Shown piece after piece: positions 12,064-60,537 of a stretch of 64,000 nucleotides of DNA. The notes below the pieces were generated by a model. The model ran no database searches. It was not told where the DNA came from and worked only from the letters and a program-made list of their open reading frames with translations. Position 1 is the first letter of the stretch. Each line of letters starts with the position of its first letter. The stretch is from positions 186,001 to 250,000 of IMG/VR virus record IMGVR_UViG_3300042868_007959. One strand, given 5' to 3'. Source of the DNA: a virus. The translations under genes and the position numbers were made by a program.

Positions 12064-12073
12064 ATATTTATTA

Positions 12074-29632: not shown

Positions 29633-31295
29633 AACCATTATTAATTTCTTCCCTTATTGTTGTAATATCTAAACTACAACCAAATAATTTAAATTTACTA
29701 ATCCCACCTTCAAAAGTACCAGCAAAATTTTCTTGTAGTACTAAGTTTTCGTCCTTAATATCAGGACCATTAACCGTATTAGATTCTATTAATCCTTGAG
29801 TACCTCCACCTAAACTGTAATTAAATGGAACACCTTGTTGTTTTTCTCTATATTCATCTAATTCCCTAAAAATAAACTCATCAAAATCCTCTAAAGTCCA
29901 TTTTAAATATCCATTAACATAAACTGTTAATACACCTTTTCTTCTAGGTTTATTCACTAATTCACATTGGGTATATTGTTCATAAGGTTTAAACCTTATT
30001 GCAACATTTGTCCACACATCTTCTGATATAATACCAGGAGAACTATAACATTCATAAATACTAGTTCCTGTAACATATTTTGTGGTTACCGAAGTTGCCG
30101 TAGTAGTTCCTGTACACCCACATCCACATTGTTCATGACAATCTACTATTGTCGTTGCCGTAACTGCCGAACAAACTCCTGTCAATATTATAGTTCTAAA
30201 CCCTATACTTCCATCATCCTTAATTCTAAACCCTAATGCGTTATCTATAATGTCCGCATTTTTATCTTTTTCTTGTGTTATTTCTGTAGTTATACCACTA
30301 AAACAACAACAACTTGATGGTTGATATACTAAAAAAGGATTATTATTTAACACTTCTTCTGAAATCACAGGTGGGGGTAAAGGATATCCTGATGAGGTAG
30401 TATACCCAGTTTCACCACTAAATAAATCCCAAAACTTATTTTCTGCCCTAGTACCCATATAAAAGAAAAATCCTTTATTATTAGGGTATGTATTATTAAG
30501 TGTATTACCTACACAAGATTCGGAACTTTTATTTAATAAGAACGTTGCCGTCCACCCATCTAAACATTCGACATCTAAACCACCTAATCTTTCAGGTAAT
30601 ATTTGATAATTGTATGGAATTGGTTTTGTATCTAAATAACATTGATACGCCTTATTCGGATCGACAGTACAAGTTTGTCCTGTTGTATCACCCGTACCAC
30701 AACAATCAGTTACGGTGTCTCCACTACAAATAGTAGGACATCTAAACCAATCTAACGGCCAAATAAATTTATTATCACTTATTTCATTGAAATAGGTGAT
30801 ATCAGATAATTTAAAGAATCCTTGATAAAACCCACCACATAATTGAGAATATCTACCTACCTCTAAGTCCGTAAGAACATCTATTGGGTAATCGTATGTA
30901 CAACCAGTAACTCTAGTCATAGAGAACCTTGTATCTGCTGATGTTAATGTTAAAGATGATCCTGTAAACGATGATAAAAAAGTTGCCCCACTGGTTGGTG
31001 TATTACAATCGTATATTATAAAACCATTATCAATACCCGTCAAACCAATATCATTTAATGTGATTCCACTACCATTGATTGTTGCACCTGTCCAAGTAGT
31101 TAAACTATAAAGAGTATTTCCTGAGTAACACGCATCATTATCAATATCAATGTCAACTAAAATACAATCCTCTAATATTTGATCATTATCTTGTTCGTCT
31201 GTACAATCATAACATAAAAATAAGTCCCAGTAGTCACTGTTACTTAATCTCATTTTTAAACAATTGTCAAAATTATGTTGGTATATATTACTCAT
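29631..31295 (-). CDS. Cys-rich appendage protein with lectin-like region
   Basis: 554 residues with an unusually high Cys content (about 30), including CGGFYQG, SCCCFSG, DCHEQCGCGCTG and DTVTDCCGTGDTTGQTC. The C-terminal 150 residues (SEDVWTNVAIRFKPYE, KGVLTVYVNGYLKWTLEDFD, FEGGISKFKLFGCSLDI) have the strand pattern of a LamG/concanavalin-type jelly roll, a fold often used for glycan binding. The Cys may form disulfides or bind metal outside the cell. Its start overlaps the 1714-residue fibre gene by four bases, so it is probably part of the same appendage. Confidence 0.55.
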   Translation of the reverse strand: MSNIYQHNFDNCLKMRLSNSDYWDLFLCYDCTDEQDNDQILEDCILVDIDIDNDACYSGNTLYSLTTWTGATINGSGITLNDIGLTGIDNGFIIYDCNTPTSGATFLSSFTGSSLTLTSADTRFSMTRVTGCTYDYPIDVLTDLEVGRYSQLCGGFYQGFFKLSDITYFNEISDNKFIWPLDWFRCPTICSGDTVTDCCGTGDTTGQTCTVDPNKAYQCYLDTKPIPYNYQILPERLGGLDVECLDGWTATFLLNKSSESCVGNTLNNTYPNNKGFFFYMGTRAENKFWDLFSGETGYTTSSGYPLPPPVISEEVLNNNPFLVYQPSSCCCFSGITTEITQEKDKNADIIDNALGFRIKDDGSIGFRTIILTGVCSAVTATTIVDCHEQCGCGCTGTTTATSVTTKYVTGTSIYECYSSPGIISEDVWTNVAIRFKPYEQYTQCELVNKPRRKGVLTVYVNGYLKWTLEDFDEFIFRELDEYREKQQGVPFNYSLGGGTQGLIESNTVNGPDIKDENLVLQENFAGTFEGGISKFKLFGCSLDITTIREEINNG

Positions 31296-44066: not shown

Positions 44067-45323
44067 ATGAGTAAAATTAAAGTATTAGTTGTCCCAAGTG
44101 ACAGAACAGGAGTTTCGTATTATAGATCTACAATACCCCATATTAAATTAGAAGAATATTTTCCGAATGACTTTCATGTTGATATTGATTATGAACCTGA
44201 ATTATTAAATGATAATTTTTTAAAACAGTATGACTTAATACATTATCATAGAACTTTAGGTGACTATAACGATATAAAAGGAATATTAGATAGATGTGAT
44301 AGATTAGGTATCGCAACAATTATGGATATAGATGATCATTGGGCACCAGGATCAGATCACCCAGCTTGGGAAATTATTAAGTCTAATGAGTTAGATAAGA
44401 AAATCCTTAACAATATAAAGGTATCTAAAAATGTCACTACTACAACAAAAATATTTGCTGATGAGATAAGTAAACATAATAAAAATGTATTTGTAATACC
44501 AAATGCAATCGATCCTTTAGAAAAACAATATCAAAATAACTCTGAAAAAAGTGAAAGGATAAGAATTGGATGGTTAGGTGGTTCATCTCATTTAAAGGAT
44601 TTGGAAATATTAAAAGGTTTAATGACTAAATTGAGACATGATGGTTTAATCGATAAAGTACAATTTGTCTTATGTGGATTTGATTTAAGAGGTACTATGA
44701 CTTTAATCGATCAAAAGACTGGACAACAAACACAAAGACCGATAAAACCAAAAGAATCTGTTTGGTATTTATATGAAAAAATATTTACTGATGATTATAA
44801 AATTGTTAGTGAAGAGTATAGAGATTTTTTACTTTCTTTTGAAAATAAAGAATATGAAAATGTTATGAATGAGCCATATAGAAGAGTATGGACAAAACCT
44901 ATTACTTCTTATGCCTCAAATTATAATCTATTTGATATATCATTGGCACCATTAAAAGAGAGTAACTTCAATAAAGTTAAATCACAATTAAAAATAATTG
45001 AGTCTGGATTCCATAAAAAAGCGGTAATCGCACAAGATTTTGGACCTTATCAAATAGATGTCATTGATTCATATGAAAAAGGTGGTACTATAAATCAAAA
45101 CGGTAACGGGTTTTTAGTCCCTACATCAAAAAACCATAAATTATGGTATTCGCATTTAAAAAGATTAATAGAAAATCCTGAATTAATTACTAGTATGGGT
45201 GAAAATCTATATAATACTGTTAATGGTAGATACGATATGAAAACAGTTTGTGGACAAAGAAGTGAATTATATAAAAAATTAGTTTCAGAAAAAAAATATG
45301 TCGATGTTGATTTAGTCAATTAA
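44067..45323 (+). CDS. GT-B fold glycosyltransferase (family 4-like)
   Basis: 418 residues. The N-terminal VLVVPSDRTGVSYYRSTIPH, DLIHYHRTLGDY and IMDIDDHWAPGSDHPAW are followed by VFVIPNAIDP and IRIGWLGGSSHLKDLEIL, and then by SLAPLKESNFNKVKSQLKII, the E-x7-E-like acceptor/donor loop region. This is the layout of retaining GT-B glycosyltransferases. It opens a 12-kb plus-strand region of glycosyltransferases and nucleotide genes. The acceptor could be DNA, virion protein or a host polysaccharide; the sequence does not say which. Confidence 0.8.
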   Translation: MSKIKVLVVPSDRTGVSYYRSTIPHIKLEEYFPNDFHVDIDYEPELLNDNFLKQYDLIHYHRTLGDYNDIKGILDRCDRLGIATIMDIDDHWAPGSDHPAWEIIKSNELDKKILNNIKVSKNVTTTTKIFADEISKHNKNVFVIPNAIDPLEKQYQNNSEKSERIRIGWLGGSSHLKDLEILKGLMTKLRHDGLIDKVQFVLCGFDLRGTMTLIDQKTGQQTQRPIKPKESVWYLYEKIFTDDYKIVSEEYRDFLLSFENKEYENVMNEPYRRVWTKPITSYASNYNLFDISLAPLKESNFNKVKSQLKIIESGFHKKAVIAQDFGPYQIDVIDSYEKGGTINQNGNGFLVPTSKNHKLWYSHLKRLIENPELITSMGENLYNTVNGRYDMKTVCGQRSELYKKLVSEKKYVDVDLVN

Positions 45324-45352
45324 AATCTTTATTCTTATATAAAAATATTAAT

Positions 45353-45919
45353 ATGGAATTAAAAGAAAAAATTATTAAAAACAGAGAAAAGTTCGACAAG
45401 ACTTCAAAGACTAATGATATATTTAGTGAATCTTTAGTGAATTTTTTAGGTGAAGATTTATTCACTGCACCTGCATCTAATATGGAAAGTATGTACAATG
45501 CATTTCCAGGAGGTTTAATCGATCACATTTTAAAAGTCACCAAATATGCAGTTTATTTAAATGATAGTTTACCTGAAAATATAAGGGTAGATAAAAAATC
45601 TATCATTAAGGTATGTTTCTTACACCAGATAGGTAAGACATTTTTATATAAATTTTGTGAATCTGAATGGCATAGAAATAATTTAGGTAAAATGTATGAT
45701 TTTAATGAGGATTTAATCTCTATGAAAATAGGTGAAAGATCCGCATACTACGCCTTATCTAATGGAGTTGAGTTAACAGAAGAGGAATACCAATCGATTA
45801 TTAATTATGATAAATCGGAAGATGATAAACAATCTAAATGGTATGGATCAACATTATCCACTCTACTAAGACAGGCAAATGAATTATCAATAATAGAATG
45901 TAAAAAAATAAATAAATGA
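45353..45919 (+). CDS. HD-domain-like protein with altered HD motif
   Basis: 188 residues. PGGLIDHILKVTKYAVYL supplies the first His and KVCFLHQIGKTFLYKF the place where HD phosphohydrolases have HD; here it is HQ. The remaining layout (helix, NDSLPENIRVDKKSI, a later ISMKIGERSAYYAL helix) fits a small HD protein. Loss of the metal-binding Asp suggests a non-catalytic or altered-metal role. The next gene (dUTPase) overlaps by four bases, which links it to nucleotide metabolism. Confidence 0.65.
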   Translation: MELKEKIIKNREKFDKTSKTNDIFSESLVNFLGEDLFTAPASNMESMYNAFPGGLIDHILKVTKYAVYLNDSLPENIRVDKKSIIKVCFLHQIGKTFLYKFCESEWHRNNLGKMYDFNEDLISMKIGERSAYYALSNGVELTEEEYQSIINYDKSEDDKQSKWYGSTLSTLLRQANELSIIECKKINK

Positions 45920-46494
45920 TAGATAACGATGATTTTGACTCTTCTTTTGCGAAAGACCTTAGAGAGTTAGACGAATTAAATGCGTTGATGTCTCAAATAG
46001 AGACATTAGATAACAAAAATTTATTTGATCTTGATATCAATGATTTTAAAATAAGAACAAAATTTACAAATAATTCTAATAATCCAGATCCTGAATACGC
46101 AAAGATTGGTGATAGTGGATTCGATTTAAGGGCATTTATTTCAGAACCGATTACTTTGAAACCTTTGGAAAGAAAGTTAATACCTACTGGTTTACGTTTT
46201 GAATTAACCCCAAATACTGAATTACAAGTTAGACCTAGAAGTGGTATGGCACTTAAATATGGTATTTCTGTTTTAAACACTCCTGGTACAGTGGACGAGG
46301 GTTACAGAGGTGATGTAGGTATTATCGCAGTTAACTTAAGTAACGATGACTATACGATACAACCAGGGGAAAGAATCGCACAAGGAGTTATTGTCAATGT
46401 AATAGGGCAAGGAATTAGTGATCTTTCCAAAGTAAATAATTTATCTGAAACTGAAAGAGGTGAAGGTGGATTTGGATCAAGTGGTAAATATTAA
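45916..46494 (+). CDS. dut: dUTPase
   Basis: 192 residues with all five motifs of trimeric dUTPase: I KIGDSGFDLRA, II RPRSGMALKYG, III NTPGTVDEGYRGDVGI, IV PGERIAQGVI and V ERGEGGFGSSGKY. It hydrolyses dUTP to dUMP and keeps uracil out of DNA. An N-terminal extension of about 50 acidic residues (IDNDDFDSSFAKDLRELDEL) precedes the catalytic domain. It overlaps the HD-like gene by four bases and is followed by a glycosyltransferase gene. Confidence 0.95.
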   Translation: MIDNDDFDSSFAKDLRELDELNALMSQIETLDNKNLFDLDINDFKIRTKFTNNSNNPDPEYAKIGDSGFDLRAFISEPITLKPLERKLIPTGLRFELTPNTELQVRPRSGMALKYGISVLNTPGTVDEGYRGDVGIIAVNLSNDDYTIQPGERIAQGVIVNVIGQGISDLSKVNNLSETERGEGGFGSSGKY

Positions 46495-46500
46495 TGTTAT

Positions 46501-48075
46501 ATGATTAGTGTAGTATTCTCAACAAGAACTGATAACCAAAAACATATTAACCATTTAAAGCATTCATCAGGATTATCTAAAAATATAGAAATTTTACAAT
46601 ATGTTAATAATGGAGAATATTCGTTAACTGAAATATATAATAGAGGCTTAAAAGATTCTAAATATGACATTGTAATTTTCTGTCATGATGATATTCTATT
46701 TAATAAGGATGGTTGGGGTAAAAAAATAATTAATCACTTTAATCGCAGTGACTTTTCTATCTTAGGTATTGCAGGAACTACTGATATACCTTTATCAGGT
46801 AAATGGTGGGAAGATAGCACCAAAATGGTAGGTATTGTAAAACACTCTAATGGTGGTAGAACTTGGGAATCCAAGTATTCATCGAATTTCGGTGATGATA
46901 TTTTAGAAGTGGTAACTACTGATGGATTATTTTTTGCGTGTCACAAACAAAGAATAAAAACAGATTTCGATGAGAATTTAAAAGGTTTTCACTTCTACGA
47001 CATAGATTTTACTTATAACAATCATCTACTAGGTTCAAAAGTGGGGGTAATCTTTGATGTTAAAGTTACACATATGTCTATAGGTGAGACTAATTCTCAA
47101 TGGGAAAGTAATCGTCTACAGTTTGTTGAGAAATATAAAGATAGTTTACCTCATAAAATTGAACCTGAAATAAGGGTAGAACACAAAGAAATCAATTTAA
47201 AAGAAACCCCAAAATTATCGATAATTATACCAACTAAAGGTAATGTTGATTTTTTAAAACAATGTATTGACTCTATATATGATAATGATGGGTATACTAT
47301 GTTTAAAATTTATATTGCAGATACAGGATCAACTGAAGAAGAAATTAATATCATTAAAGAATATATTTCTAAAATGGGTGATCAGATAAAATTAATTGAG
47401 TACGATTATTATAATTTTGCCAAAATAAATAATGATGTAGTCAATAATCATATAGAAAAAGATACTGAAGTTTTATTATTTTGTAATAATGATATTAAGT
47501 TAGTAAATAATGCAATCACTAAAATGATTGATACCTATAATAAAAATAAAAACACTGTGGGTACTATTGGTGCCAGATTACATTATGGTAACAACACCAT
47601 ACAACACTCAGGAATTATAATGTATATATCACAAAATGGTAGAGTTAATGGACAAAAACGTTTAGTAAATATACATTTATCTCATTATGGGTTGCGTTCA
47701 TACTATAACTACCATGTAGACACTAAAAAAGATGTATTTGGTAATACTGCTGCATTTATGATGATATCTAAAAATCTTTTTTTGGATATTGGTGGCTTTA
47801 ATACTTCATACAATGAATGTTTCGAAGATGTCCAATTAAATGTTGAATGCATTAGTAGAAATAAAGTAAATATATTTGTTGGTGAATCTGTATGTTATCA
47901 CTATGAAAGTATAACTAGAAATAAAAGTGAGGAAAAATTAAAAAGAGAGTCAGAAGACTACACAAAAAGAATAATACCTTTTATTCTTAATAATAAAAAA
48001 ACATTTGACTACTTCACTAATATAAAAAGAAAAGATTTTGAAAATTTAATCGGAAATGGAAACACCCCTAATTAA
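46501..48075 (+). CDS. Two-domain family 2-type glycosyltransferase
   Basis: 524 residues. The first half (VVFSTRTDNQKHINHLKHSS, DIVIFCHDDILFNKDGW, TTDGLFFACHKQRI, FHFYDIDFTYNNHL) is a GT-A domain with a DD motif at about residue 62. From about residue 240, LSIIIPTKGNVDFLKQCIDS, LLFCNNDIKLVNNA and GGFNTSYNECFEDVQLNVEC make a second GT2 domain with NND as the metal-binding motif and ED as likely base. Two transferase domains in one chain suggest synthesis of an alternating or two-sugar structure. Confidence 0.78.
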   Translation: MISVVFSTRTDNQKHINHLKHSSGLSKNIEILQYVNNGEYSLTEIYNRGLKDSKYDIVIFCHDDILFNKDGWGKKIINHFNRSDFSILGIAGTTDIPLSGKWWEDSTKMVGIVKHSNGGRTWESKYSSNFGDDILEVVTTDGLFFACHKQRIKTDFDENLKGFHFYDIDFTYNNHLLGSKVGVIFDVKVTHMSIGETNSQWESNRLQFVEKYKDSLPHKIEPEIRVEHKEINLKETPKLSIIIPTKGNVDFLKQCIDSIYDNDGYTMFKIYIADTGSTEEEINIIKEYISKMGDQIKLIEYDYYNFAKINNDVVNNHIEKDTEVLLFCNNDIKLVNNAITKMIDTYNKNKNTVGTIGARLHYGNNTIQHSGIIMYISQNGRVNGQKRLVNIHLSHYGLRSYYNYHVDTKKDVFGNTAAFMMISKNLFLDIGGFNTSYNECFEDVQLNVECISRNKVNIFVGESVCYHYESITRNKSEEKLKRESEDYTKRIIPFILNNKKTFDYFTNIKRKDFENLIGNGNTPN

Positions 48076-48703
48076 CATATTAACTAGAACATCTAATAGA
48101 CCTAAAGGGTTTAAAATTAATGTTGAAAATATAAAAAATCAGACATACAAAAATATTAACCATATTGTCTGTACTGATAATAAAGATTCTATAAACTATA
48201 TTAAAGAAAATGGTATAGAAAATTTTATTTTTATAGATAGAGAGGAGATTATTAAAAATGATAAATCCCCAAACCCGCACACTGGAGTATATTCACCACA
48301 TAACCTTTATTTTAATGAAATGATAAAATTGGTTAATGAGGGATGGGTAATTTATTTAGATGATGACGATAGATTTACTTCATTAGATACAGTAGAAAAA
48401 ATAGTTAATATTATTAATGAATGTAATGAAGATTTTTTAATCTATTGGAGAATGATTTATTCGAATGGTGTAGTGTTACCAGTGGATATGTCAAATGGTA
48501 GATATCCATTCATAGGTGGTATTGGTGGATCGTGTTTTACTTTTAATAGTAAATATCGAAATTTATCTATATGGGATGGATGGAAATGTGGTGATTTTAG
48601 AGTAATCAAAAAATTACATGATAATATACCAAATAAAGTATGGGTACCTGAAAATTTTATTTTTGTACCATCACAGGGTTTTGGATTAAAAGAAGATTTA
48701 TAA
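48056..48703 (+). CDS. GT-A type glycosyltransferase
   Basis: 215 residues. INILTRTSNRPKGFKINVEN, then NQTYKNINHIVCTDNKDSIN, and WVIYLDDDDRFTSLDTV with the DDDD metal-binding motif, are typical of family 2-type enzymes. The C-terminal half (GGIGGSCFTFNSKYRNLSIW, GDFRVIKKLHDNIP) contains the acceptor side. It overlaps the previous gene by 20 bases. Confidence 0.75.
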   Translation: METPLINILTRTSNRPKGFKINVENIKNQTYKNINHIVCTDNKDSINYIKENGIENFIFIDREEIIKNDKSPNPHTGVYSPHNLYFNEMIKLVNEGWVIYLDDDDRFTSLDTVEKIVNIINECNEDFLIYWRMIYSNGVVLPVDMSNGRYPFIGGIGGSCFTFNSKYRNLSIWDGWKCGDFRVIKKLHDNIPNKVWVPENFIFVPSQGFGLKEDL

Positions 48704-49344
48704 TGGATTTTTTTAACGATAATAACACAGAAATTTTAATAGTAAATTATAATACACCAGATTATATTATAAGATTACATAGTCAAATAAGAGAATATAT
48801 TTCTTCGGAAATAACAATTAATATTATTGACGGTAGTGATGAAAAATTAAAAATTAGGGGTGATGAGTTCCCTCAATTGAATAAAAGAATGGAACTTATT
48901 TTAAAAGAAGATAAGTTTACTAACCACCATTTAATAGGATACAATATCCATCATGGTCCAGGTATGGATTATGGATTAAAAAAAATACAGAAAAAATATG
49001 TCTTAATTTTAGATTCAGATGTTGAAGTTTGTAACAAAGGTTTATTAAATATTTTTTCTAAAAATATCACAAAAGAATTTTATACTATAGGTAGAATAGT
49101 GACAGTTGATGATGGTGGAAATAATACCCATAAAAATGGGTATAAATATGTTCACCCTAGTACAATGATGTTGGATAGGGAATTTTATATGGGATTTGAT
49201 ATACCTTTTATAAAACACGGTGCACCATGTTTGAATTTTATGAAAAAAATAAACCCTAAATTTTTAATAGATATTAAGAATATTGATGATTATGTGAAAT
49301 ACGTTGGTCGAGGTACTAGAAAATTTTTTGGTATGAATTTATAA
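48703..49344 (+). CDS. GT-A type glycosyltransferase-like protein
   Basis: 213 residues. ILIVNYNTPDYIIRLHSQIR, INIIDGSDEKL, YVLILDSDVEVCNKGLLNIF with a DSD motif, and a C-terminal HPSTMMLDREFYMGFDIPFI are characteristic. It starts at the last base of the previous stop, so the set is translated as a coupled series. Confidence 0.7.
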   Translation: MDFFNDNNTEILIVNYNTPDYIIRLHSQIREYISSEITINIIDGSDEKLKIRGDEFPQLNKRMELILKEDKFTNHHLIGYNIHHGPGMDYGLKKIQKKYVLILDSDVEVCNKGLLNIFSKNITKEFYTIGRIVTVDDGGNNTHKNGYKYVHPSTMMLDREFYMGFDIPFIKHGAPCLNFMKKINPKFLIDIKNIDDYVKYVGRGTRKFFGMNL

Positions 49345-49360
49345 AAATATTGAATAAGTT

Positions 49361-50053
49361 ATGAAGATAAGTTTTAATATGGCAACTATGCCTGAAAGGT
49401 TGAGTGGGGCAATAAAAACAATAGAATCTATTTATGATCAGGCAGACATAATAAGGTTGTATTTAAATAAATTTGATGAGGTACCTAATGAATTTAAAAG
49501 AGATAAAATTGTTACTCACATAGGAGATGATTTGAGATCGACAGGTAAATTGTTTTGGGCGTTAAATAAAGATGAGTATTATTTTTGTATTGATGACGAC
49601 TTAATTTATCCACCAACGTATTCTAATGATATGATTAGTAAATTAAATGAGTATAATGATGAAATAATTGTATCGTTACATGGTAAAATTTTAAAAGATG
49701 GTATAAAAAATAGTTATTTTAGGGATTTAAAATTAGGTCTACATTGTTTACATGATGTGAATGTAGATACTTGGGTACATGTAATTGGTAACGGTGTTAG
49801 TACATTTAATACTAATAAAATTGTAATTGATTATAAAAAATTTAAATATAACTATATGGACGATATTATGGTATCATTAGAAGTACAAAAACAAAATAAA
49901 GGTGCTTTAGTGATGGCACATAAATCAAACTATCTATTATATAATGCACCAAAAGGGGGTACATTACATGGTGAATATGCCAATAACGATTCGACTCAAA
50001 CAGAAATGGTTAATAGTATTGAGTGGGAAATATTACAAAAACCTAAAATTTAA
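49361..50053 (+). CDS. GT-A type glycosyltransferase-like protein
   Basis: 230 residues. SFNMATMPERLSGAIKTIES and KDEYYFCIDDDLIYPPTYSN (IDDD metal motif) indicate a GT-A enzyme. The C-terminal part includes LGLHCLHDVNVDTWVHVIGN and a MDDIMVSLEVQ acid pair that could be the catalytic base. Similar stand-alone proteins occur in phage and bacterial glycan clusters. Acceptor unknown. Confidence 0.68.
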   Translation: MKISFNMATMPERLSGAIKTIESIYDQADIIRLYLNKFDEVPNEFKRDKIVTHIGDDLRSTGKLFWALNKDEYYFCIDDDLIYPPTYSNDMISKLNEYNDEIIVSLHGKILKDGIKNSYFRDLKLGLHCLHDVNVDTWVHVIGNGVSTFNTNKIVIDYKKFKYNYMDDIMVSLEVQKQNKGALVMAHKSNYLLYNAPKGGTLHGEYANNDSTQTEMVNSIEWEILQKPKI

Positions 50054-50056
50054 AAT

Positions 50057-50764
50057 ATGGAAAAATATATTATAGGAACTGGATGGTGGTGTGATGGTAG
50101 CGGCACCCACACACACAGTAAACACCAACCTTATGTAGATAAAAAAACTAGACAAGTAGAATTTTTTGATTTATGGTATAAATCTGTTATGAAATTTACT
50201 AACCCACATAATATTGTTGTTATTGATTCGAATAGTCCAATAAAACCCAATATTATAGATAAAGAAAATGTTAAATTATTTTCTTTAAATCAAAATTATG
50301 GTGCTGCGGTAGATGGTACCAGTAAAGGTATTTTATCGGGTTGGGATAGAAGTGTTTTACTTTCCGCAAGTATTTCTTTTTTGGAAGATGTAGATTATTT
50401 TGTTTACGTAGAACAAGATTGTGTTTTATGGGGTACAAATATAATTGAGGATATAATTCGTAGTATGGGTGATAAAAAAATTGCGTTAGGTAGTGGAATT
50501 GGTACACCTCAGCCAATACAACAGTCTTTAATTGTAGTAAAAAGAGAATATATTCCTACATTTTTAAAACTAGAGTTTGATAATGATAAAGAAAATTTAA
50601 AAATATCGCCAGAAAATAGATATTATAAACATTTTACAAACGATATAAAATTTTTAGAAATAGATTATGGTAGAAAAAGACCCATAGATTTCAATAAAAA
50701 ACAATTCTATATACAACATTTAAACACTAGTGAATTAGAGCAATATAAAAATAAATTGTTATGA
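50057..50764 (+). CDS. Glycosyltransferase-like protein
   Basis: 235 residues. IGTGWWCDGSGTHTHSKHQP is an unusual His-rich start, then NIVVIDSNSPIKPNIIDKEN, LFSLNQNYGAAVDGTSKGIL and YFVYVEQDCVLWGTNIIEDI, where EQD stands in the DxD position. This altered motif is common in small GT-A relatives of phages. The downstream methyltransferase gene overlaps by four bases. Confidence 0.6.
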   Translation: MEKYIIGTGWWCDGSGTHTHSKHQPYVDKKTRQVEFFDLWYKSVMKFTNPHNIVVIDSNSPIKPNIIDKENVKLFSLNQNYGAAVDGTSKGILSGWDRSVLLSASISFLEDVDYFVYVEQDCVLWGTNIIEDIIRSMGDKKIALGSGIGTPQPIQQSLIVVKREYIPTFLKLEFDNDKENLKISPENRYYKHFTNDIKFLEIDYGRKRPIDFNKKQFYIQHLNTSELEQYKNKLL

Positions 50765-51330
50765 GTAAATTTAAGATAAATACGAAGGGTTATTGGGAAA
50801 GTGATACATCATATGGGCATCATTTTGACGGTGGTATATATAATGGTATTGTTTCTTTAATTGAAAAATTTGGGGTGACAAATGTAGTTGATTTTGGATG
50901 TGGGATGGGGGATTATATAAAACGTATTATGGATTTGGGATATAAATGTGAGGCGTATGATGGTAACCCTAACACACCTTTATTAACAAATGGAATAGGT
51001 AAAGTTTTAGATTTTTCCGAAAAGTTTAATCTTAACAGAAAATTTGATTTAGTTATCAGTTTAGAGGTTGGTGAACACATTCCGAAAGAGTATGAAAATA
51101 TTTATATCAATAACATATGTAATCATAGTAATAATTATATACTCATTAGTTGGGCAATTATTGGTCAAAGTGGTGATGGGCACGTAAATTGCCAAAACAA
51201 TGATTATGTCATAAAAGAAATGGATAAAAACGGTTTTGAGTATGACGAATTAAACAGTACCAACTTAAGGAACTTAACCACAAATGCGTGGTGGTTTAAA
51301 AATACAATAATGTTTTTTAAAAAAAAATGA
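50761..51330 (+). CDS. SAM-dependent methyltransferase
   Basis: 189 residues. TNVVDFGCGMGDYIKRIMDL is SAM-binding motif I, CEAYDGNP motif II, and FDLVISLEVGEHIPKE motif IV-like. This is the class I fold. Position after the glycosyltransferases suggests methylation of a sugar or an end-capping step in glycan synthesis. It ends the 44-51.3 kb series; a 153-base gap follows. Confidence 0.8.
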   Translation: MSKFKINTKGYWESDTSYGHHFDGGIYNGIVSLIEKFGVTNVVDFGCGMGDYIKRIMDLGYKCEAYDGNPNTPLLTNGIGKVLDFSEKFNLNRKFDLVISLEVGEHIPKEYENIYINNICNHSNNYILISWAIIGQSGDGHVNCQNNDYVIKEMDKNGFEYDELNSTNLRNLTTNAWWFKNTIMFFKKK

Positions 51331-51483
51331 GAATAAGTTGATACCCCTTATACTATTCATTTGTGGTATGAAAGAGTGAGTAAAAACATAACTCAAAACA
51401 GAAATCAAATTTATAATAACTTAATATTTAAATTAAAATGAATTTATAGTTTATAAATTGAAAAAATATATTAATATTTAAAT
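51331..51483 (+). other. Intergenic region with repeated A/T motif before PhoH gene
   Basis: The 153-base gap contains TTAATATTTAAAT twice (near 51420 and just before the ATG at 51484), close to the late-type motif but with TTTAA in place of TTTAT. No RNA gene or terminator with a clear stem was found. Confidence 0.4.
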
Positions 51484-52239
51484 ATGAGTAGAAATAGAAG
51501 AAAAAATAAACAACTTTCAGAGGAAGAAATCTTAGAAATGGAAGCGTTTCTTAATAGAAACAATATTGAGGAGGAAAAAGTTTTTAAAACTATAACCATC
51601 AATGTAAAATGTAAGACAGAAAATCAAAAAAAATTAGTAGACTCTATAAAAAATAATGAAATTACTATATGTAGTGGTTTACCTGGATCAGGTAAGACTT
51701 TTTTATCTTGTGCAGAGGCATTAAAACTGGTTACTCTCGAAGAAAGGTATAAAAGAATTGTACTAATAAAATCAATAACCCCATTAAAGAATGAGGAGAT
51801 TGGGCATTTACCTGGAGATTTAAAAGAAAAAATGGCACCGATAATGGAATCTTTTACTGATAATATTAGAAAATTAATTGGTAAAAGTAGAATGGATAAA
51901 TTAATTGAGTTAGGTGTGATAGAAATTGTACCAATCGCATTTGCTAGAGGTAGAAGTATCGATAACTCAGTAATATTAATCGATGAGGCTCAAAATATTA
52001 CATTAGATAATATACGCACACTTATGACTAGAATTGGAGATAATTCTAAAATGGTTATTATGGGTGACGTTAAACAAAAAGATTTAAGAAATAAAAAAGA
52101 TAGTTCTTTAGGTGTAGTATTAGAAAAATTTAAAGATGTTAAAGATTTTGGTTGTGTTGAATTAAGAAATCCAGAGGATGTTATTAGAAATCCTATAATA
52201 AAATTAATCGAAGAGATTTTTGAAACGTTAGAACCTTAA
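51484..52239 (+). CDS. phoH: PhoH-like ATPase
   Basis: 251 residues. CSGLPGSGKTFLSCAEALKL is the Walker A region (about residue 63), VILIDEAQNITLDNIRTLMT the Walker B, and KMVIMGDVKQKDLRNKKDSS the sensor region typical of PhoH. The central VLIKSITPLKNEEIGHLPGD is likewise conserved. PhoH is widespread in T4-like phages and is thought to act in RNA metabolism or helicase-like functions. It starts a new coupled series with the SET gene. Confidence 0.92.
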   Translation: MSRNRRKNKQLSEEEILEMEAFLNRNNIEEEKVFKTITINVKCKTENQKKLVDSIKNNEITICSGLPGSGKTFLSCAEALKLVTLEERYKRIVLIKSITPLKNEEIGHLPGDLKEKMAPIMESFTDNIRKLIGKSRMDKLIELGVIEIVPIAFARGRSIDNSVILIDEAQNITLDNIRTLMTRIGDNSKMVIMGDVKQKDLRNKKDSSLGVVLEKFKDVKDFGCVELRNPEDVIRNPIIKLIEEIFETLEP

Positions 52240-52240
52240 T

Positions 52241-52621
52241 ATGATTTTTATAAGTAATAAAATTGAAGTTAGGGATTCGTTAACACACGGTAGAGGTGTT
52301 TTCGCTAAAGAAGATATTAATGAAGGTGAAATCATAGAAAATTGTCATTTTACTATTTTAGAACAACCTTTCATTTCTATCGATAAAAAATTGCAAGAAT
52401 ATGTGTTTGCTTGGCCAAAAACTTCTTTTGCATCAAAATCTGTTGTAGTTTGGGGTTTTGGGTCAATCTATAATCACTCTAAAAATAATAATGCTGATTG
52501 GGTGACTAGTGAAGAAAATAATTTATTTACATTTTTTGCGATAAAGAATATTAAATCGGGTGAAGAGATTTATACTAATTATGGTGAGGGATATGAAAAA
52601 GTAGTAAAAACTGTACAGTAA
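52241..52621 (+). CDS. SET-domain protein (lysine methyltransferase-like)
   Basis: 126 residues, the size of a minimal SET domain. VRDSLTHGRGVFAKEDINEG is the start (GRGVFA), FGSIYNHSKNNNADW holds the NHS motif that binds SAM, and FAIKNIKSGEEIYTNYGEGY has the GEE(I/L)xxxYG tail with the catalytic Tyr. SET enzymes methylate lysine side chains, usually on histones or ribosomal proteins in other organisms. Targets in a phage infection could be host ribosomal or virion proteins. It begins one base after the PhoH stop. Confidence 0.82.
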   Translation: MIFISNKIEVRDSLTHGRGVFAKEDINEGEIIENCHFTILEQPFISIDKKLQEYVFAWPKTSFASKSVVVWGFGSIYNHSKNNNADWVTSEENNLFTFFAIKNIKSGEEIYTNYGEGYEKVVKTVQ

Positions 52622-52788
52622 TGGGTAAGTATCTATTAAAAACAAAAAAAGACGAAGTGATAAATAATACCACACAAGAAAATTTAGAAGTGGCATTAGA
52701 ATTTTTTTCGTCATTAAAAAAAATAACCGTTAAAGAGTTATTAAAGATATATAAAGTAGAAAAATATGAAAGTAGGAATAACAATTAA
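52621..52788 (+). CDS. Small basic protein of 55 residues
   Basis: 55 residues from the ATG at 52621, whose first base is the last base of the SET stop codon. Its end overlaps the next gene by 23 bases. The sequence is Lys- and Glu-rich and helical (QENLEVALEFFSSLKKITVK). Coupled placement on both sides supports a real gene. Function unknown. Confidence 0.55.
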   Translation: MGKYLLKTKKDEVINNTTQENLEVALEFFSSLKKITVKELLKIYKVEKYESRNNN

Positions 52789-53377
52789 TGGGGTAGTAAG
52801 AGATTTTATGACTAAGTTTGAATCTGTCTACGATAAATACTATCCTTCTGAGTTAGATGAGGAACCAATCAAAAGAGAAATAACTACATCTAACCTGTTA
52901 GATCATTTTAATTTTACTGGTGGAACTGAGGAGTTAAATAAATTTCTTTATGTCGATTCATCGTTAGAGATATTTGGTCACGCTGGTGAAACTAAATTAA
53001 ATTCTGTAGAACATTTAAATCAGTTACATAACCTAATAGAGGATATGGGACATACACCTATTGTAGTTAGTAGGGAATTAAATAATAGTAAACCTGCAAC
53101 TTTATTTTTCTTATCTAAATTATCTGCAAAAATTAATAAAATTATTTTTATTAAAGACTATGATAAAGTTTGGGATTATGTGGATGTAATAATAACTGCA
53201 GATCCTGAAATTTTAGACAATAAACCAAATAGTAAAATAACTATAAAAGTTATTAATCACTATAATAAAGATAGTGAATCAGACTATACTATTTTGGATC
53301 TAAAAGAAATTTTAGACGATAAAAAATTATTAGAAAAAATATTAAATACTAAAACAATCGAATTTGAAGATGTTTAA
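52766..53377 (+). CDS. HAD-like protein lacking the catalytic Asp pair
   Basis: 203 residues. The start VGITINGVVRDFMTKFESVY matches the first strand and loop of HAD-type 5'-nucleotidases (IGIDIDGVL...), but both Asp are replaced (TIN). The middle LHNLIEDMGHTPIVVSRELN and IIFIKDYDKVWDYVDVIITA follow motifs II and IV in layout. It may be a catalytically dead relative used for binding. Neighbours on the same strand are a SET protein and glycosyltransferases. Confidence 0.55.
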   Translation: MKVGITINGVVRDFMTKFESVYDKYYPSELDEEPIKREITTSNLLDHFNFTGGTEELNKFLYVDSSLEIFGHAGETKLNSVEHLNQLHNLIEDMGHTPIVVSRELNNSKPATLFFLSKLSAKINKIIFIKDYDKVWDYVDVIITADPEILDNKPNSKITIKVINHYNKDSESDYTILDLKEILDDKKLLEKILNTKTIEFEDV

Positions 53378-53384
53378 TATTTAC
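53376..53384 (+). promoter_or_regulatory. AATATTTAC late-type motif variant
   Basis: Lies 37 bases upstream of the ATG at 53422, overlapping the preceding stop codon. Confidence 0.3.
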
Positions 53385-53421
53385 TTATCTAAATTTTATA
53401 ATAAAATAATAATAAAAACTT

Positions 53422-53760
53422 ATGGAAAACGATAATTTACTTTTAGAGATTGGCGGAAAAGAACTTTATTTCGATATTGACAAACTTTCAGATGTTGTTA
53501 AAATAGAAAATAAAGTAGTAGACAATGTTATAATAAAAAAAGAATCCATCGATAATGGTGATGATGATATTATGGATGAAAGTGCAATCCAGATAGACAT
53601 CACTAAATATGAATTATATAGAGAGATGATTGCAACTATATTAGGATATATGGACGAAATCGATGATAAAATGGGTTCAGTCGCACTTAATAAAACAAAT
53701 ATCCCATTTAAAATGGCGTATAATACTTTACTAATGAAGGGTATTATAAAAGAATTATAA
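53422..53760 (+). CDS. Small acidic protein of unknown function
   Basis: 112 residues. The first strand pair (LLLEIGGKELYFDIDKLSDV) and acidic centre (DNGDDDIMDESAIQIDITKY) are followed by a helix (YREMIATILGYMDEIDDKMG) and a C-terminal helix-turn. It resembles small virion or assembly proteins in general character only. It precedes the GT-B gene by 22 bases. Confidence 0.5.
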   Translation: MENDNLLLEIGGKELYFDIDKLSDVVKIENKVVDNVIIKKESIDNGDDDIMDESAIQIDITKYELYREMIATILGYMDEIDDKMGSVALNKTNIPFKMAYNTLLMKGIIKEL

Positions 53761-53782
53761 TAACAAAAAAAAATAAACTATT

Positions 53783-54907
53783 ATGAGTGAACAATTAGAA
53801 AAAATTAAAGAATCGATCGAAAAAATAAATAATAAGGATTTTGGTATTTATTTTTTCACTATCGACACAAAAGGTAACCCAACTGCGGGAGTTGCAACAA
53901 TTTACGAACACGTAAAAAAATTAAGAGATTTAGGTTACAACGCACAAATCTTACATGATAAGGATGACTATAAACTTAGGGAAGATGAAAATGGTATTGG
54001 TATTGCGGACTGGTTAGGTGAAGAATACGCTAACTTACCACACATATCTATAGAATCCCAAAAATTACAAGTTGGGACTTCTGATTTTGTTGTTATACCT
54101 GAAGCGTTTGCTAGTATTATGAAACAAACAGTCAACTTCCCATGTAAGAGAATCGTATTTTTACAATCATATGAATATATTTTTGAAATGTTAGAGATCG
54201 GTGAGGGTTGGGAACAGTTTGGTATTAAAGATGTAATTACAACTAACGAAAATTTAAGTAAGTATGTAAATTCATTATTTAGAGGAATGACAACTGATAT
54301 TATTCCATTAGGTATCCCTTCTTATTTTGAGAATGATGGTAAACCTAAAGTACCTACCGTTGCAATGGTTGCGAGAGATAAAAGAGAATTACTGAAAATA
54401 GTAAAAATATTTTATCAAAAATATCCACACTATAGATTTCTTACCTTTAGAGATATGTCAGGGTTACCTAGAAAGACTTTTGCTAATGAATTATCCAAAT
54501 CCTTTTTAAGTGTGTGGATTGATGAGTTATCAAGTTTTGGCACATTCCCATTAGAATCGATAAAAACTAACACACCTGTTATCGGTAAAATACCTAGAAT
54601 GGTTCCTGAGTGGATGGGGACAATCGATGAAGCAGGTAATCTTAATTTAAATGATAATGGTATATGGACGGCAAATCTTAATTCTATACCAGATATCATT
54701 GCTACTATGGTAGGACTTTATTTGGAGGACGCTTTACCACAAAATATTATGAATGGTATGGTTGAATGGTCAGATAAATATTCTACAGAGGACTCAGATA
54801 AAATTTTGGGTGAAGTTTATGACAAAATTTTTAAGAGAAGAATTGTTGAATTGGAATTTAGTTATCAACAAATTTCTAATACAGAAGAAAACGTAGAGGT
54901 TAAGTAA
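53783..54907 (+). CDS. GT-B fold glycosyltransferase-like protein
   Basis: 374 residues. The N-terminal domain has GIYFFTIDTKGNPTAGVATI, VKKLRDLGYNAQILHDKDDY and DFVVIPEAFAS; the C-terminal domain has TVAMVARDKRELLKIVKIFY and LSVWIDELSSFGTFPLESIK, where the ExxG...E-like donor loop of GT-B enzymes would be. It resembles glycosyltransferases that modify virion or surface glycans. It forms a series with the next GT2-like gene. Confidence 0.68.
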   Translation: MSEQLEKIKESIEKINNKDFGIYFFTIDTKGNPTAGVATIYEHVKKLRDLGYNAQILHDKDDYKLREDENGIGIADWLGEEYANLPHISIESQKLQVGTSDFVVIPEAFASIMKQTVNFPCKRIVFLQSYEYIFEMLEIGEGWEQFGIKDVITTNENLSKYVNSLFRGMTTDIIPLGIPSYFENDGKPKVPTVAMVARDKRELLKIVKIFYQKYPHYRFLTFRDMSGLPRKTFANELSKSFLSVWIDELSSFGTFPLESIKTNTPVIGKIPRMVPEWMGTIDEAGNLNLNDNGIWTANLNSIPDIIATMVGLYLEDALPQNIMNGMVEWSDKYSTEDSDKILGEVYDKIFKRRIVELEFSYQQISNTEENVEVK

Positions 54908-54937
54908 AATAATAACATAAAATTAAAGTAAAAAAAT

Positions 54938-55714
54938 ATGAATAGTATTTCATTAATAGTACCAGTACATAAATTAGAAAAAACATATTTAGATTCTTGT
55001 ATAACAAGTATTAAAAATCAAAAAGAAAAACCTGATGAAGTTTTATTTGTCACATCAAATGATACAGAATTAAAAGAATATCTTAATAGTTATGATTTCG
55101 ATCAAATTAAAGATATTGTTAGAATTGTAGAAAATGAAAGTGGAGATTACGGATTCCAATCACAAATGAATTACGGTGTAAAAGAAAGTAAATCAGAATA
55201 TTTTACTTTTGTAGAATATGATGATGAAATATCCCCAATATGGATTAAAAATGGTAAAGAGTATTCTGAACATTATCCTGAGGTAGGAGTATTTTTACCT
55301 ATAATATATGAAACAGATGAAAATGGTAGATTTATCTCATTCACTAATGAGAGTGTTTGGGCAAAAGATTTTTCTGAAGTAAGTGGATACTTAGATAACA
55401 ACGCACTACAAAGAGTTCAAAACTTTAATTTTGACGGTATGGTTGTTAAAAAAAGTATTTATGAAGATAATGGTGGGTTAAAATCAAATATGAAATTAAC
55501 ATTCACATATGAATTTTTATTAAGAATGACATATTTTTCTGTTCCAGTTATGGTAATCCCTAAATTAGGTTATAAACACACAAACAATAGAGAAGGTTCA
55601 CTTTTTGTGGAATATAAATCAACTATAGATGTATTAGAAAGTAAATTTTGGGTTAACAAAGCTAAAAAAGAATATTTTTACACACAAGATAGGGGAATAA
55701 CATACGAAGTATAA
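54938..55714 (+). CDS. Family 2-type glycosyltransferase
   Basis: 258 residues. SLIVPVHKLEKTYLDSCITS, then KNQKEKPDEVLFVTSN and YFTFVEYDDEISPIWIKNGK (YDDE metal motif) define a GT-A domain. NALQRVQNFNFDGMVVKKSI and the later TYEFLLRMTY stretch complete it. It is the last glycosyltransferase of the cluster, followed directly by the late sigma factor gene. Confidence 0.8.
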   Translation: MNSISLIVPVHKLEKTYLDSCITSIKNQKEKPDEVLFVTSNDTELKEYLNSYDFDQIKDIVRIVENESGDYGFQSQMNYGVKESKSEYFTFVEYDDEISPIWIKNGKEYSEHYPEVGVFLPIIYETDENGRFISFTNESVWAKDFSEVSGYLDNNALQRVQNFNFDGMVVKKSIYEDNGGLKSNMKLTFTYEFLLRMTYFSVPVMVIPKLGYKHTNNREGSLFVEYKSTIDVLESKFWVNKAKKEYFYTQDRGITYEV

Positions 55715-55721: not shown

Positions 55722-56456
55722 ATGTTAGAAGAACCTAAGAAAAGAGGTAGAAAGAGAACAAACAATTTATATTTTGGTCCTGAACAGGAAGAAGCAGTAG
55801 TTAAATTTTTAACATGTGAGTCATATAACGAAAGAAATAAAATTTATAATGAATATCTAAAAGCCCCAATAGATAAGATGGTAGAATCCATCATAAGACG
55901 ATATAAATTATATAGGAAAGAGTATGAGTATGAAGATGTTCATTCAGACACTCTTTCTTTTTTAATAACTAAAATGCACAATTTTAAACCAGATAAGAAT
56001 AAAAAAGCTTATTCCTATTTTGGTACGATATGTAAACATTATCTTTTAGGTCAACTTATAAAAGACGATAAGAAGTTAAAATCTGATGTATCCTATGAAG
56101 ATGTATATCGGACTGTAGAAACTATGGAAGAATTTACTTATACCATAGATGATGACAAAATACAATTAGATACTTTTATAGATGAAATTTCTGCAAGTAT
56201 TAAAGGTGAAATGAAATATAATAAATTATCTGAAATAGAACTTAAAGTTGGTTTAGCATTGACTACTATTTTAGATAACTGGGAAACTATATTTGAACAA
56301 ATTGAAAGTGGTAACAAATATAACAAAAATTTAATTTTATCTTATATAAGAGAAATATCTGATCTATCTACTAAAGATATAAGAGTAGGTATGAGAAGAT
56401 TTAAGAAGATTTATGGTTTATTGAAAAACGATAAATTAGAAGACGATTCTTTGTAA
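55722..56456 (+). CDS. Late transcription sigma factor (T4 gp55-like)
   Basis: 244 residues. After a basic start (EEPKKRGRKRTNNLYFGPEQ), EEAVVKFLTCESYNERNKIY, NEYLKAPIDKMVESIIRRYK and EYEYEDVHSDTLSFLITKMH, then NFKPDKNKKAYSYFGTICKH, correspond to sigma-70 region 2 in its reduced phage form. The C-terminal half (TTILDNWETIFEQIESGN; LSTKDIRVGMRRFKKIYGLL) has a helix-turn-helix-like end. gp55 directs host RNA polymerase to late promoters in T4. The AATATTTAT motif found before most structural genes here may be its target. Confidence 0.82.
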   Translation: MLEEPKKRGRKRTNNLYFGPEQEEAVVKFLTCESYNERNKIYNEYLKAPIDKMVESIIRRYKLYRKEYEYEDVHSDTLSFLITKMHNFKPDKNKKAYSYFGTICKHYLLGQLIKDDKKLKSDVSYEDVYRTVETMEEFTYTIDDDKIQLDTFIDEISASIKGEMKYNKLSEIELKVGLALTTILDNWETIFEQIESGNKYNKNLILSYIREISDLSTKDIRVGMRRFKKIYGLLKNDKLEDDSL

Positions 56457-59041: not shown

Positions 59042-59233
59042 ATGGAAAATAGTGTAATCAATTGGGAAAATATAGGTAATTCTTCTATTAAAATGAAATT
59101 AGAAGAATTATTACATGAACAAACGGCATTAAAGGATAGGATAATAAAACTTTCTGAAAAGTTAGAATCTGTAGAAAAGGAATATTACTATGGGAATAAA
59201 GTTTTAGTAAAAAGATATAAAGGAGAAGAGTAA
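59042..59233 (+). CDS. Small coiled-coil protein upstream of the spike gene
   Basis: 63 residues from the ATG at 59042; an upstream TTG at 59027 lies inside the previous gene and is less likely. NSSIKMKLEELLHEQTALKD, RIIKLSEKLESVEKEYY is a single long helix with heptad hydrophobics. The stop shares its last base with the first of the spike gene, suggesting coupled translation and a chaperone or stalk role. Confidence 0.6.
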   Translation: MENSVINWENIGNSSIKMKLEELLHEQTALKDRIIKLSEKLESVEKEYYYGNKVLVKRYKGEE

Positions 59234-60537
59234 TGAATAATTATTATACAGACAGTACTAATACTAACGTAATACCAATTATAAGGGTTGGTGAAGTTAT
59301 TTCTGTGGTAGACACAACTAAATCGGGAAGAATAAAAGTTAGAATTACAGGCGTTGATGACACAGAAAGTGATAAAAATTTAATAGATTGTGTACCATTA
59401 TTACCAAAATATTTAATAACATTACCTAAAGCTGGAGAATGTGTTTTCGTATTCCAATATGAATATAATGACTCATCCCCAACTGCCTCATTTAAAAACA
59501 AAAGATTTTGGATTGGACCACTAATAACTCAACCAAATAGGTTACCTGAAGAAACATATAATTCAGCACTTTCGATATTACCCGATGGATATACCAAATT
59601 AAAGGACCCAAATTTAGAAATTGGTGCCTATGGGGAAGATGAGGATATTATTTTACAAGGTAGATATAATACTGATATCTTACAAAAAGATAGACAAATT
59701 TGGTTAAGAGTTGGGAAGAATATTGAGGGTGAACTTAATAAATTTAATAACAAAACTTTAGGGTATGTACAGTTAAAGTTTGGTGGTGAAAAATTAAAAA
59801 GAAATTTAGTAGATAAAGAAATAGTTACGTATGTGGAACAACAACCTGATAAAATTATTAGTGTAATTTTAAATACTATTACAAATAATGGTAATATTTT
59901 ATCTGGTGATTTACCTGCAGACACTTATAGAAAGGATGATATTAATAGAACTGAAATAAGTGTAGTCATAAATGATGCAAAAAGTGGTGCGGAGATCGCT
60001 AGTTTCTCCAATAGTAATTCCTTTTTAGGTAGTTCCTCTAGGGATTCCTCATTGGAGGCGGCTAAGTCATTTATAGACGTAAATAAAGGTGAACGATGGA
60101 GAATAAAATCAAAATCGAATGATATAATTGCAATATATAAAGGGGATAATGGTATCGCAACATTTACAAGTAAACCTATTGAGGTTAGAAAGAAAATAAA
60201 AGAAGTTAAATTAGAAACTAATAAAAGTGATAAAACTAGTGTTGTTAACATTGTAGCAAATAAAATTAATTTTATTAGTCATGACGGTGAACACACATTT
60301 AATTTAACTGATCCTAAACAGTTGATAACTGATGATGAACAACAGAAGATAAATAATGAGGCTCATCCAGTAGTTTATGGAGATATTCTAGTAGAATTTT
60401 TACAATTAGTTAAAAAATATGTAGAGTTACACGTACACCCTTATCATGGATTAACTGCGGACCCAAGTACTGTTACAACAAACGTATTAAGTTTTGATTT
60501 AAATAAATTATTAAATAAGAATATTAATACTAATTAA
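59233..60537 (+). CDS. Baseplate spike / hub OB-fold protein (T4 gp5-like)
   Basis: 434 residues. IIRVGEVISVVDTTKSGRIK, VRITGVDD, then VPLLPKYLITLPKAGECVFV, is the OB-fold of gp5/VgrG-type central spikes. The C-terminal region includes KINFISHDGEHTFNLTDPKQ, then VVYGDILVEFLQLVKKYVEL and HVHPYHGLT, a typical end of phage spike/hub OB proteins. No lysozyme domain of the T4 gp5 type is present. The protein would form the trimeric tip that pierces the outer membrane. Confidence 0.75.
   Translation: MNNYYTDSTNTNVIPIIRVGEVISVVDTTKSGRIKVRITGVDDTESDKNLIDCVPLLPKYLITLPKAGECVFVFQYEYNDSSPTASFKNKRFWIGPLITQPNRLPEETYNSALSILPDGYTKLKDPNLEIGAYGEDEDIILQGRYNTDILQKDRQIWLRVGKNIEGELNKFNNKTLGYVQLKFGGEKLKRNLVDKEIVTYVEQQPDKIISVILNTITNNGNILSGDLPADTYRKDDINRTEISVVINDAKSGAEIASFSNSNSFLGSSSRDSSLEAAKSFIDVNKGERWRIKSKSNDIIAIYKGDNGIATFTSKPIEVRKKIKEVKLETNKSDKTSVVNIVANKINFISHDGEHTFNLTDPKQLITDDEQQKINNEAHPVVYGDILVEFLQLVKKYVELHVHPYHGLTADPSTVTTNVLSFDLNKLLNKNINTN

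What the first reader, a model, noticed from the sequence alone, without database searches (positions are those of the whole stretch)
44067..55714. Eight glycosyltransferase-like genes with a methyltransferase
Eight genes (nine transferase domains, both GT-A and GT-B) and a SAM methyltransferase lie within 12 kb, mostly with overlapping starts and stops. That is more than needed for a single sugar on DNA, as in T4, and suggests assembly of a multi-sugar, possibly methyl-capped glycan on DNA or virions, or modification of host surface glycans.
Basis: partly seen in the sequence, partly recalled or inferred. Interest (0 to 1): 0.7.

Follow-up and report, generated by a model that had tools for sequence, protein, structure and literature searches.

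The report
Swappable sugar-coat gene cassette in phages
A large phage, probably of Bacteroidota bacteria, carries a fixed set of four sugar-adding enzymes that frame a slot where each related phage holds a different set of sugar-making genes, which probably gives each strain its own glycan, most likely on the virus particle.

Summary
The cluster is real. Seven of the eight proposed glycosyltransferase genes (eight of nine domains) are supported by profile, solved-structure or AlphaFold evidence; the eighth (50057-50764) rests on motifs only. The methyltransferase is confirmed. Gene overlap is overstated (4 of 15 junctions).

The larger finding is comparative. In about 100 related viral contigs four glycosyltransferases (44067, 46501, 53783, 54938) hold fixed positions beside dUTPase, PhoH, a sigma factor and baseplate genes, and the stretch beside 46501 (here 48056-51330) is a hypervariable slot: 39 distinct complete cassettes of 1-15 genes, 287 genes in 112 families, 59 families seen in one cassette only. 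They encode glycosyltransferases, GDP-fucose and other sugar-nucleotide enzymes, acetyltransferases, aminotransferases and methyltransferases. A 95-97% identical phage has swapped 2.8 kb cleanly between 48703 and 51462.

No lipid-linked initiating transferase or flippase was found in ten relatives, and no C5-cytosine methylase in nine. In Chitinophaga prophages a related four-gene cassette lies between terminase and portal. Best reading: cytoplasmic assembly of a strain-specific glycan on virion proteins (0.5), ahead of host-surface (0.25) or DNA (0.15) modification. The acceptor is inferred, not shown. New variant of a known kind.

The parts
44067..45323 (+). core glycosyltransferase 1, GT-B (GT4-like); conserved in position across the lineage
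   Evidence: homologue also in Chitinophaga prophages
45353..45919 (+). HD-domain-like protein, conserved neighbour in the closer relatives
   Evidence: PF01966 E 0.004; phrog_5889; synteny
45916..46494 (+). dUTPase, left anchor of the variable slot
   Evidence: phrog_135 E 1e-50
46501..48075 (+). core glycosyltransferase 2, two GT-A domains (PF13712 + PF00535); second domain resembles chondroitin synthase K4CP
48056..48703 (+). GT-A, semi-constant first gene of the slot (shared with G001; weak homologues at the same place in about ten other loci)
48703..51461 (+). variable cassette of this strain; replaced by unrelated DNA in the 95-97% identical phage L017/L066/G001
   Evidence: blastn junctions at 48703 and 51462
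48703..49344 (+). variable GT-A
   Evidence: PF00535 E 2.5e-4; no homologue in the loci
49361..50053 (+). variable GT-A, KfiA / heparosan synthase GlcNAc-transferase-like
   Evidence: PDB sequence match E 3e-23
50057..50764 (+). variable, putative GT-A (unproven)
   Evidence: no homologue found; motif layout only
50761..51330 (+). SAM methyltransferase, found in other cassettes at other places
   Evidence: PF13489 E 3e-7; homologues in L046, L094, L097, L126
51484..52239 (+). PhoH-like ATPase, right anchor of the slot
   Evidence: phrog_170 E 7e-66
52241..52621 (+). SET-domain protein, present only in the window, L017/L066 and L018
   Evidence: PF00856 E 1e-17
52766..53377 (+). HAD/NT5C-like protein, conserved
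   Evidence: weak PF06941; synteny
53422..53760 (+). conserved small protein of unknown function
   Evidence: synteny; no Pfam or PHROG match
53783..54907 (+). core glycosyltransferase 3, GT-B
   Evidence: conserved
54938..55714 (+). core glycosyltransferase 4, GT-A; nearest solved relative GalT1
   Evidence: conserved
55722..56456 (+). sigma-factor-like protein (late sigma family)
   Evidence: phrog_234 E 4e-5, Sigma70_r2 E 3e-4
59233..60537 (+). baseplate-hub-like virion protein downstream of the locus
   Evidence: 4 of 17 homologues match phrog_430 baseplate hub, best E 1e-6

Best explanation
The locus is a two-part glycan assembly system. Four conserved soluble glycosyltransferases (44067, 46501, 53783, 54938) build or start a common core glycan in the host cytoplasm. 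A variable slot beside 46501 holds a strain-specific set of further transferases, sugar-nucleotide enzymes and capping enzymes, here a KfiA-like GlcNAc-transferase, two or three other transferases and a methyltransferase. The outer sugars therefore differ from strain to strain, much as O-antigen loci vary between bacterial strains but without membrane export. The acceptor is most likely a virion protein (capsid, tail or fibre) that is decorated late in infection. Cassettes are replaced by recombination in the conserved flanks. Shown: the genes, the constant and variable layout, the clean swap, the gene families, the absence of the tested export and initiation families. Inferred: the common core glycan, the acceptor, the timing, and any selective reason (escape from glycan-binding defences or unproductive adsorption).
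For: Constant frame and variable middle in about 100 related loci, 39 distinct cassettes, cassette sharing falling to none for 6 of 12 pairs at 80-90% core identity and 65 of 88 at 70-80%. Clean swap between strains with 95-97% DNA identity. Cassette content typical of polysaccharide loci. No Bac_transf, WecA-type transferase or flippase in ten relatives although the controls rang; hardly any protein with a membrane-like segment, and six of eight checked are soluble-enzyme families. Nearest solved relatives of two core enzymes include cytoplasmic protein-glycosylation transferases: AmGGT of the ApAgt family, GtfA and SdgB for 53783 (ApAgt per PMC12159676), GalT1 for 54938. The core sits beside a sigma factor and baseplate-like genes. 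In Chitinophaga chromosomes a 44067-like gene with a methyltransferase-like and two GT-A-like genes, two of them resembling cassette genes, lies between terminase and portal, followed by scaffold and major head genes.
Against: No acceptor was seen, and no virion has been analysed. Structural similarity to protein-glycosylating enzymes is remote (17% identity or less for the best structural match) and the same fold acts on many acceptors. AmGGT itself does not use glycopeptides. Soluble transferases can also act on host lipid A-core or on DNA. Neighbourhood with structural genes is only association.
Confidence: 0.5

Rival explanations
1. The enzymes remodel the host's surface polysaccharide or LPS core from inside the cell during infection, blocking adsorption of competing phages and of the phage's own progeny to debris.
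For: This is the published reading for similar clusters in pelagimyophages (PMC7029224) and cyanophage P-SSM2 (PMC7824862). Cassettes hold GDP-fucose, acetyltransferase and methyltransferase genes typical of O-antigens. The tail fibre genes also differ between the two near-identical strains.
Against: No initiating phosphoglycosyltransferase or flippase in ten relatives and hardly any membrane proteins in the cassettes. The related prophage cassette lies inside the head operon.
Confidence: 0.25
2. The enzymes glycosylate the phage's own DNA with a variable multi-sugar modification that evades restriction.
For: Virus-encoded transferase sets that build DNA glycans are published (Pyle 2024, cited in PMC12619734). 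Variability could answer glycan-specific restriction enzymes. dUTPase and nucleotidase-like genes lie in the frame.
Against: No C5-cytosine methylase in nine relatives although the controls rang. No TET/JBP match, although that control was silent. No PF00303 enzyme in this record. Relatives that have one have a single copy, and the one read (G001) keeps the LPFN motif of dUMP-using thymidylate synthases. No transferase matches the T4 alpha or beta glucosyltransferase families. The record lacks about 27.5 kb present in G001, so absence is weak here.
Confidence: 0.15
3. The slot is a general-purpose island for exchanging cargo, and the glycan genes serve different acceptors in different phages.
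For: Cassette gene content is almost entirely non-homologous between phages, and one cassette holds an NAD synthase-like gene.
Against: Cargo is consistently sugar-related and always beside the same conserved transferases.
Confidence: 0.1

Closest known systems
Moraphages (PMC12619734)
   Same: Large aquatic phages, mostly predicted to infect Bacteroidota, with four core glycosyltransferase orthogroups, dUTPase, PhoH, sigma factor and tail sheath; the authors report variable islands of unknown content.
   Different: Not shown to be the same lineage here. Lysine-tRNA ligase, found in 24 of their genomes, was not found in this record. That paper does not describe the constant/variable glycan layout in the passages read.
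Polysaccharide gene clusters of cyanophages such as P-SSM2 (PMC7824862) and the host recognition cluster of pelagimyophages (PMC7029224)
   Same: Transferases, epimerases/dehydratases and methyltransferases in a polymorphic cluster of a T4-like phage.
   Different: Different hosts and location. Here four conserved transferases at fixed positions frame the variable slot, and no tail fibre lies inside it.
Virion glycosylation of mycobacteriophages (Freeman 2023, cited in PMC12619734)
   Same: Phage-encoded transferases decorating capsid and tail proteins; near structural genes.
   Different: That work is experimental; here the acceptor is inferred and the gene set is far larger and variable.
Chlorovirus glycosylation of the major capsid protein (from general knowledge; review PMC5408694 found, not read)
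   Same: Virus-encoded soluble transferases plus methyltransferase making a variable virion glycan.
   Different: Eukaryotic virus; no fixed swap slot known to me.
Phapecoctavirus glycosyltransferase cluster (Escherichia phage Mt1B1_P17)
   Same: Four adjacent glycosyltransferase genes, one a remote homologue of 44067 (about 22% identity; map).
   Different: Small cluster without sugar-nucleotide genes in the stretch examined.

Membership tests
Virion protein glycosylation system | transferase genes lie among virion or late genes | tested here: met
   sigma-like gene and baseplate-hub-like gene downstream; related prophage cassette between terminase and portal
Virion protein glycosylation system | glycan on a virion protein | not testable with these tools
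   needs purified virions
Membrane-exported surface polysaccharide (O-antigen, capsule) locus | lipid-linked initiating transferase | tested here: not met
   PF02397 and PF00953: 0 of 10 records, controls rang
Membrane-exported surface polysaccharide (O-antigen, capsule) locus | flippase | tested here: not met
   PF01943: 0 of 10 records, controls rang in 13 of 14
Membrane-exported surface polysaccharide (O-antigen, capsule) locus | variable set of transferases and sugar-nucleotide enzymes between constant flanks | tested here: met
T4-type DNA glucosylation | dCMP hydroxymethylase (PF00303 family) | tested here: inconclusive
   none in this record, but about 27.5 kb is missing relative to G001; G001 has one copy with LPFN
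T4-type DNA glucosylation | alpha/beta glucosyltransferase of T4 type | tested here: not met
   Pfam scans of the cluster proteins gave GT2, PF13712 and group-1 families only
TET/5hmC-type DNA hypermodification | C5-cytosine methylase | tested here: not met
   PF00145: 0 of 9 records, controls rang in 10 of 14
TET/5hmC-type DNA hypermodification | TET/JBP dioxygenase | tested here: inconclusive
   PF12851: no match, but no control rang
Moraphage lineage | four core glycosyltransferases, dUTPase, PhoH, sigma factor, tail sheath, DNA polymerase, helicase | tested here: met
   (same kinds of protein; orthogroups not compared)
Moraphage lineage | lysine-tRNA ligase (24 of the published genomes) | tested here: not met
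   PF00152 absent in G000, present in 1 of 10 records; record incomplete
Moraphage lineage | placement in the TerL/MCP/PolB trees | not tested
   their genomes are not in the collections at hand

The most novel reading that the evidence does not exclude
The locus is a phage 'serotype' system: conserved transferases put a common core glycan on virion proteins and interchangeable cassettes give each strain a chemically distinct coat, exchanged by recombination between constant flanks, implying frequency-dependent selection on the sugar coat of phage particles in natural waters.
Probability: 0.35. Interest if true: 0.85.

Novelty: new variant of a known kind. Interest (0 to 1): 0.62.

Why it matters
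Phage glycosyltransferases are usually explained as DNA protection or host-surface change. A lineage in which four of them are core genes and frame a slot with near-total turnover of sugar genes suggests strong selection for chemical diversity of a phage glycan. It makes a concrete question testable: what recognises phage glycans in nature? The cassettes are also a large unsampled set of soluble carbohydrate-active enzymes, and the Chitinophaga prophages give a culturable entry point.

Tried and rejected
(1) Close relatives of 49361 and 50057 in viral contigs: none. 50057 also has none in phages, PDB, Pfam or bacterial genomes. (2) hhalign of single cassette proteins against core profiles was uninformative even for proven transferases, so it says nothing about 50057. 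(3) Promoter scan around the junctions: no excess over shuffles (92 found, 101 expected), so no regulatory claim is made. (5) TET/JBP search had a silent control. (7) Filing this as a moraphage was rejected because lysine-tRNA ligase was not found and no tree was possible. (8) Filing it as an O-antigen-type export locus was rejected. (9) A profile of the baseplate-hub-like protein found nothing in PDB.
Full report
Setting. The window is bases 186001-250000 of a 253,879-base virus record. It carries tail sheath, DNA polymerase, an SNF2/UvsW-type helicase, dUTPase, PhoH and a late-sigma-like protein. Against a nearly identical contig, G001, the record lacks about 27.5 kb between its two ends, so it is incomplete and absences are weak.

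Observation. All genes exist at the stated coordinates. Pfam, PHROG, PDB-sequence and AlphaFold evidence supports transferases at 44067 (GT-B), 46501 (two GT-A), 48056, 48703, 49361, 53783 (GT-B) and 54938. The gene at 49361 has no Pfam match but resembles KfiA and heparosan synthase B (E 3e-13 and 3e-23), which suggests a GlcNAc-transferase. The methyltransferase at 50761 is confirmed. The gene at 50057 remains unproven. Four of 15 gene junctions overlap. Every PF00535 match of the record lies here, and profiles of the four core transferases find no second copy in the record.

Constant and variable parts. The 53783 protein found 35 loci and the 46501 protein 79 (the latter list was cut at 80). 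Gene maps show one order throughout the lineage: 44067, HD-like protein or another protein of 200-240 aa, dUTPase, 46501, then a stretch without homology to the window, then PhoH, 52766, 53422, 53783, 54938, sigma-like, 56494, 56879. A few loci differ, notably L069-L072, L074, L078, L080, L082, L124, L129 and L130, where 46501 homologues sit in other surroundings. The variable genes lie mostly after 46501; in some phages they lie before it, and some phages have almost none. A rumen contig binned with Paludibacteraceae keeps 44067, 53783 and 54938 side by side without the slot.

Turnover. Between dUTPase and PhoH (52766 where PhoH was not detected) I found 39 distinct complete cassettes with 1-15 genes, mean 7.4. 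Their 287 genes form 112 families, 59 seen in one cassette only. At 80-90% identity of dUTPase plus PhoH, half of the pairs (6 of 12) share no cassette gene; at 70-80%, 65 of 88 share none. The near-identical phage L017/L066 matches the window at 95-97% DNA identity up to base 48703, the last base of a stop codon, and again from 51462, 22 bases before the PhoH start, with unrelated DNA between (2,758 versus 2,851 bases). In L018, L046 and L021 homology resumes at 51461-51470. The other large differences between the two strains within the window are the tail-fibre-like genes at 29.6-34 kb and the gene at 39860 (36% identity).

Content. Of 122 non-redundant proteins from the slot region of the 35 loci, 20 are sugar-nucleotide dehydratases/epimerases (GDP-mannose 4,6-dehydratase E 5e-124, GDP-fucose synthase E 1e-73), 8 hexapeptide acyltransferases, 4 DegT aminotransferases, 4 GT10, 3 GT11, 4 GT2 and 4 PF13524 transferases, with FkbM, TylF and other methyltransferases. 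Where the left anchor was out of reach, some of these proteins could lie outside the slot. Of 287 slot genes only 7 have one hydrophobic segment and none has more; in the first set 4 of 150 have any, one being a truncated ORF at a contig edge. Six of eight such proteins checked are soluble-enzyme families and two are unmatched. PF02397, PF00953 and PF01943 are absent from ten relatives, including records of 272-318 kb, while the controls rang.

Acceptor. DNA: no C5-cytosine methylase in nine records; the TET/JBP search is inconclusive because its control was silent; PF00303 is absent here, and relatives that have it have one copy, of which the G001 protein keeps LPFN as expected of a dUMP enzyme (the residue rule is from general knowledge, and a dUMP hydroxymethylase is not excluded). 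Host surface: no export or lipid-carrier start, although soluble transferases could act on the LPS core. Virion: the locus adjoins a sigma-like and a baseplate-hub-like gene, and in two Chitinophaga chromosomes a 44067-like gene stands with a GT-A-like, a methyltransferase-like and a further GT-A-like gene between terminase and portal, upstream of scaffold and major head genes; two of these neighbours resemble slot genes of the aquatic phages. The PHROG identification was run on the L144 copy; L145 shows the same gene sizes and order. Closest solved relatives of 53783 and 54938 include AmGGT, GtfA, SdgB and GalT1; AmGGT is a homologue of ApAgt, which extends glucose on adhesin proteins in the cytoplasm, but AmGGT itself does not accept glycopeptides (PMC12159676). 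For 44067 the nearest structures are general GT4 enzymes, so nothing about its acceptor follows.

Conclusion. I think the most likely function is late, cytoplasmic assembly of a strain-specific glycan on a virion protein, with a conserved core and an exchangeable outer part (0.5). The layout and turnover are shown; the acceptor, timing and selective reason are inferred.

Known work. Polymorphic polysaccharide clusters are described in cyanophages (PMC7824862) and pelagimyophages (PMC7029224) and were read as host-surface modification. Four core glycosyltransferase orthogroups are reported for moraphages, with variable islands left for future study (PMC12619734). The fixed frame with a swap slot, its content and its prophage counterpart inside a head operon were not found described in the papers read. 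Only open-licence papers could be searched.

Noticed in passing
window 52241-52621: SET-domain protein (PF00856, E 1e-17), a protein-methyltransferase family unusual in phages; present only in this phage, L017/L066 and L018 among the loci.
   Followed up: partly
window 31292-36436 and 29631-31295: 1,714-aa fibre with YadA-head-like repeats (SHAEG..T.ASG) and a Peptidase_G2 self-cleaving end, plus a 554-aa neighbour; both diverge between near-identical strains.
   Followed up: partly
window 39860-41653, 41668-43725 and 3242-3925: Three proteins share an N-terminal motif like NLTEqLnRiKtLM, perhaps a propeptide or packaging signal; 39860 is only 36% identical in the near-identical strain.
   Followed up: partly
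L144 and L145 (Chitinophaga), about bases 3750-14530: Prophage head operon with a four-gene glycan cassette between terminase and portal.
   Followed up: partly
L143 (68.7 kb contig in a Paludibacteraceae rumen MAG): Relative with the glycosyltransferase core but no dUTPase, 46501, variable slot or PhoH at this site; also a host hint (Bacteroidota).
   Followed up: partly
G000 ends versus G001:50-77.5 kb: About 27.5 kb present in G001, including a thymidylate-synthase family gene, is missing from this record.
   Followed up: partly
window 12074-14923: Tail sheath protein of 949 aa, with the sheath match confined to the last third (residues 627-946); what the N-terminal two thirds do is unknown.
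   Followed up: no
L112:13870-14634: NAD synthase-like gene (PF02540 E 3e-49) inside a glycan cassette.
   Followed up: no
LR756501 (735 kb uncultured phage), L131:11998-13200: Remote 44067 homologue (35% identity over 96%) without the other genes of the locus nearby.
   Followed up: partly
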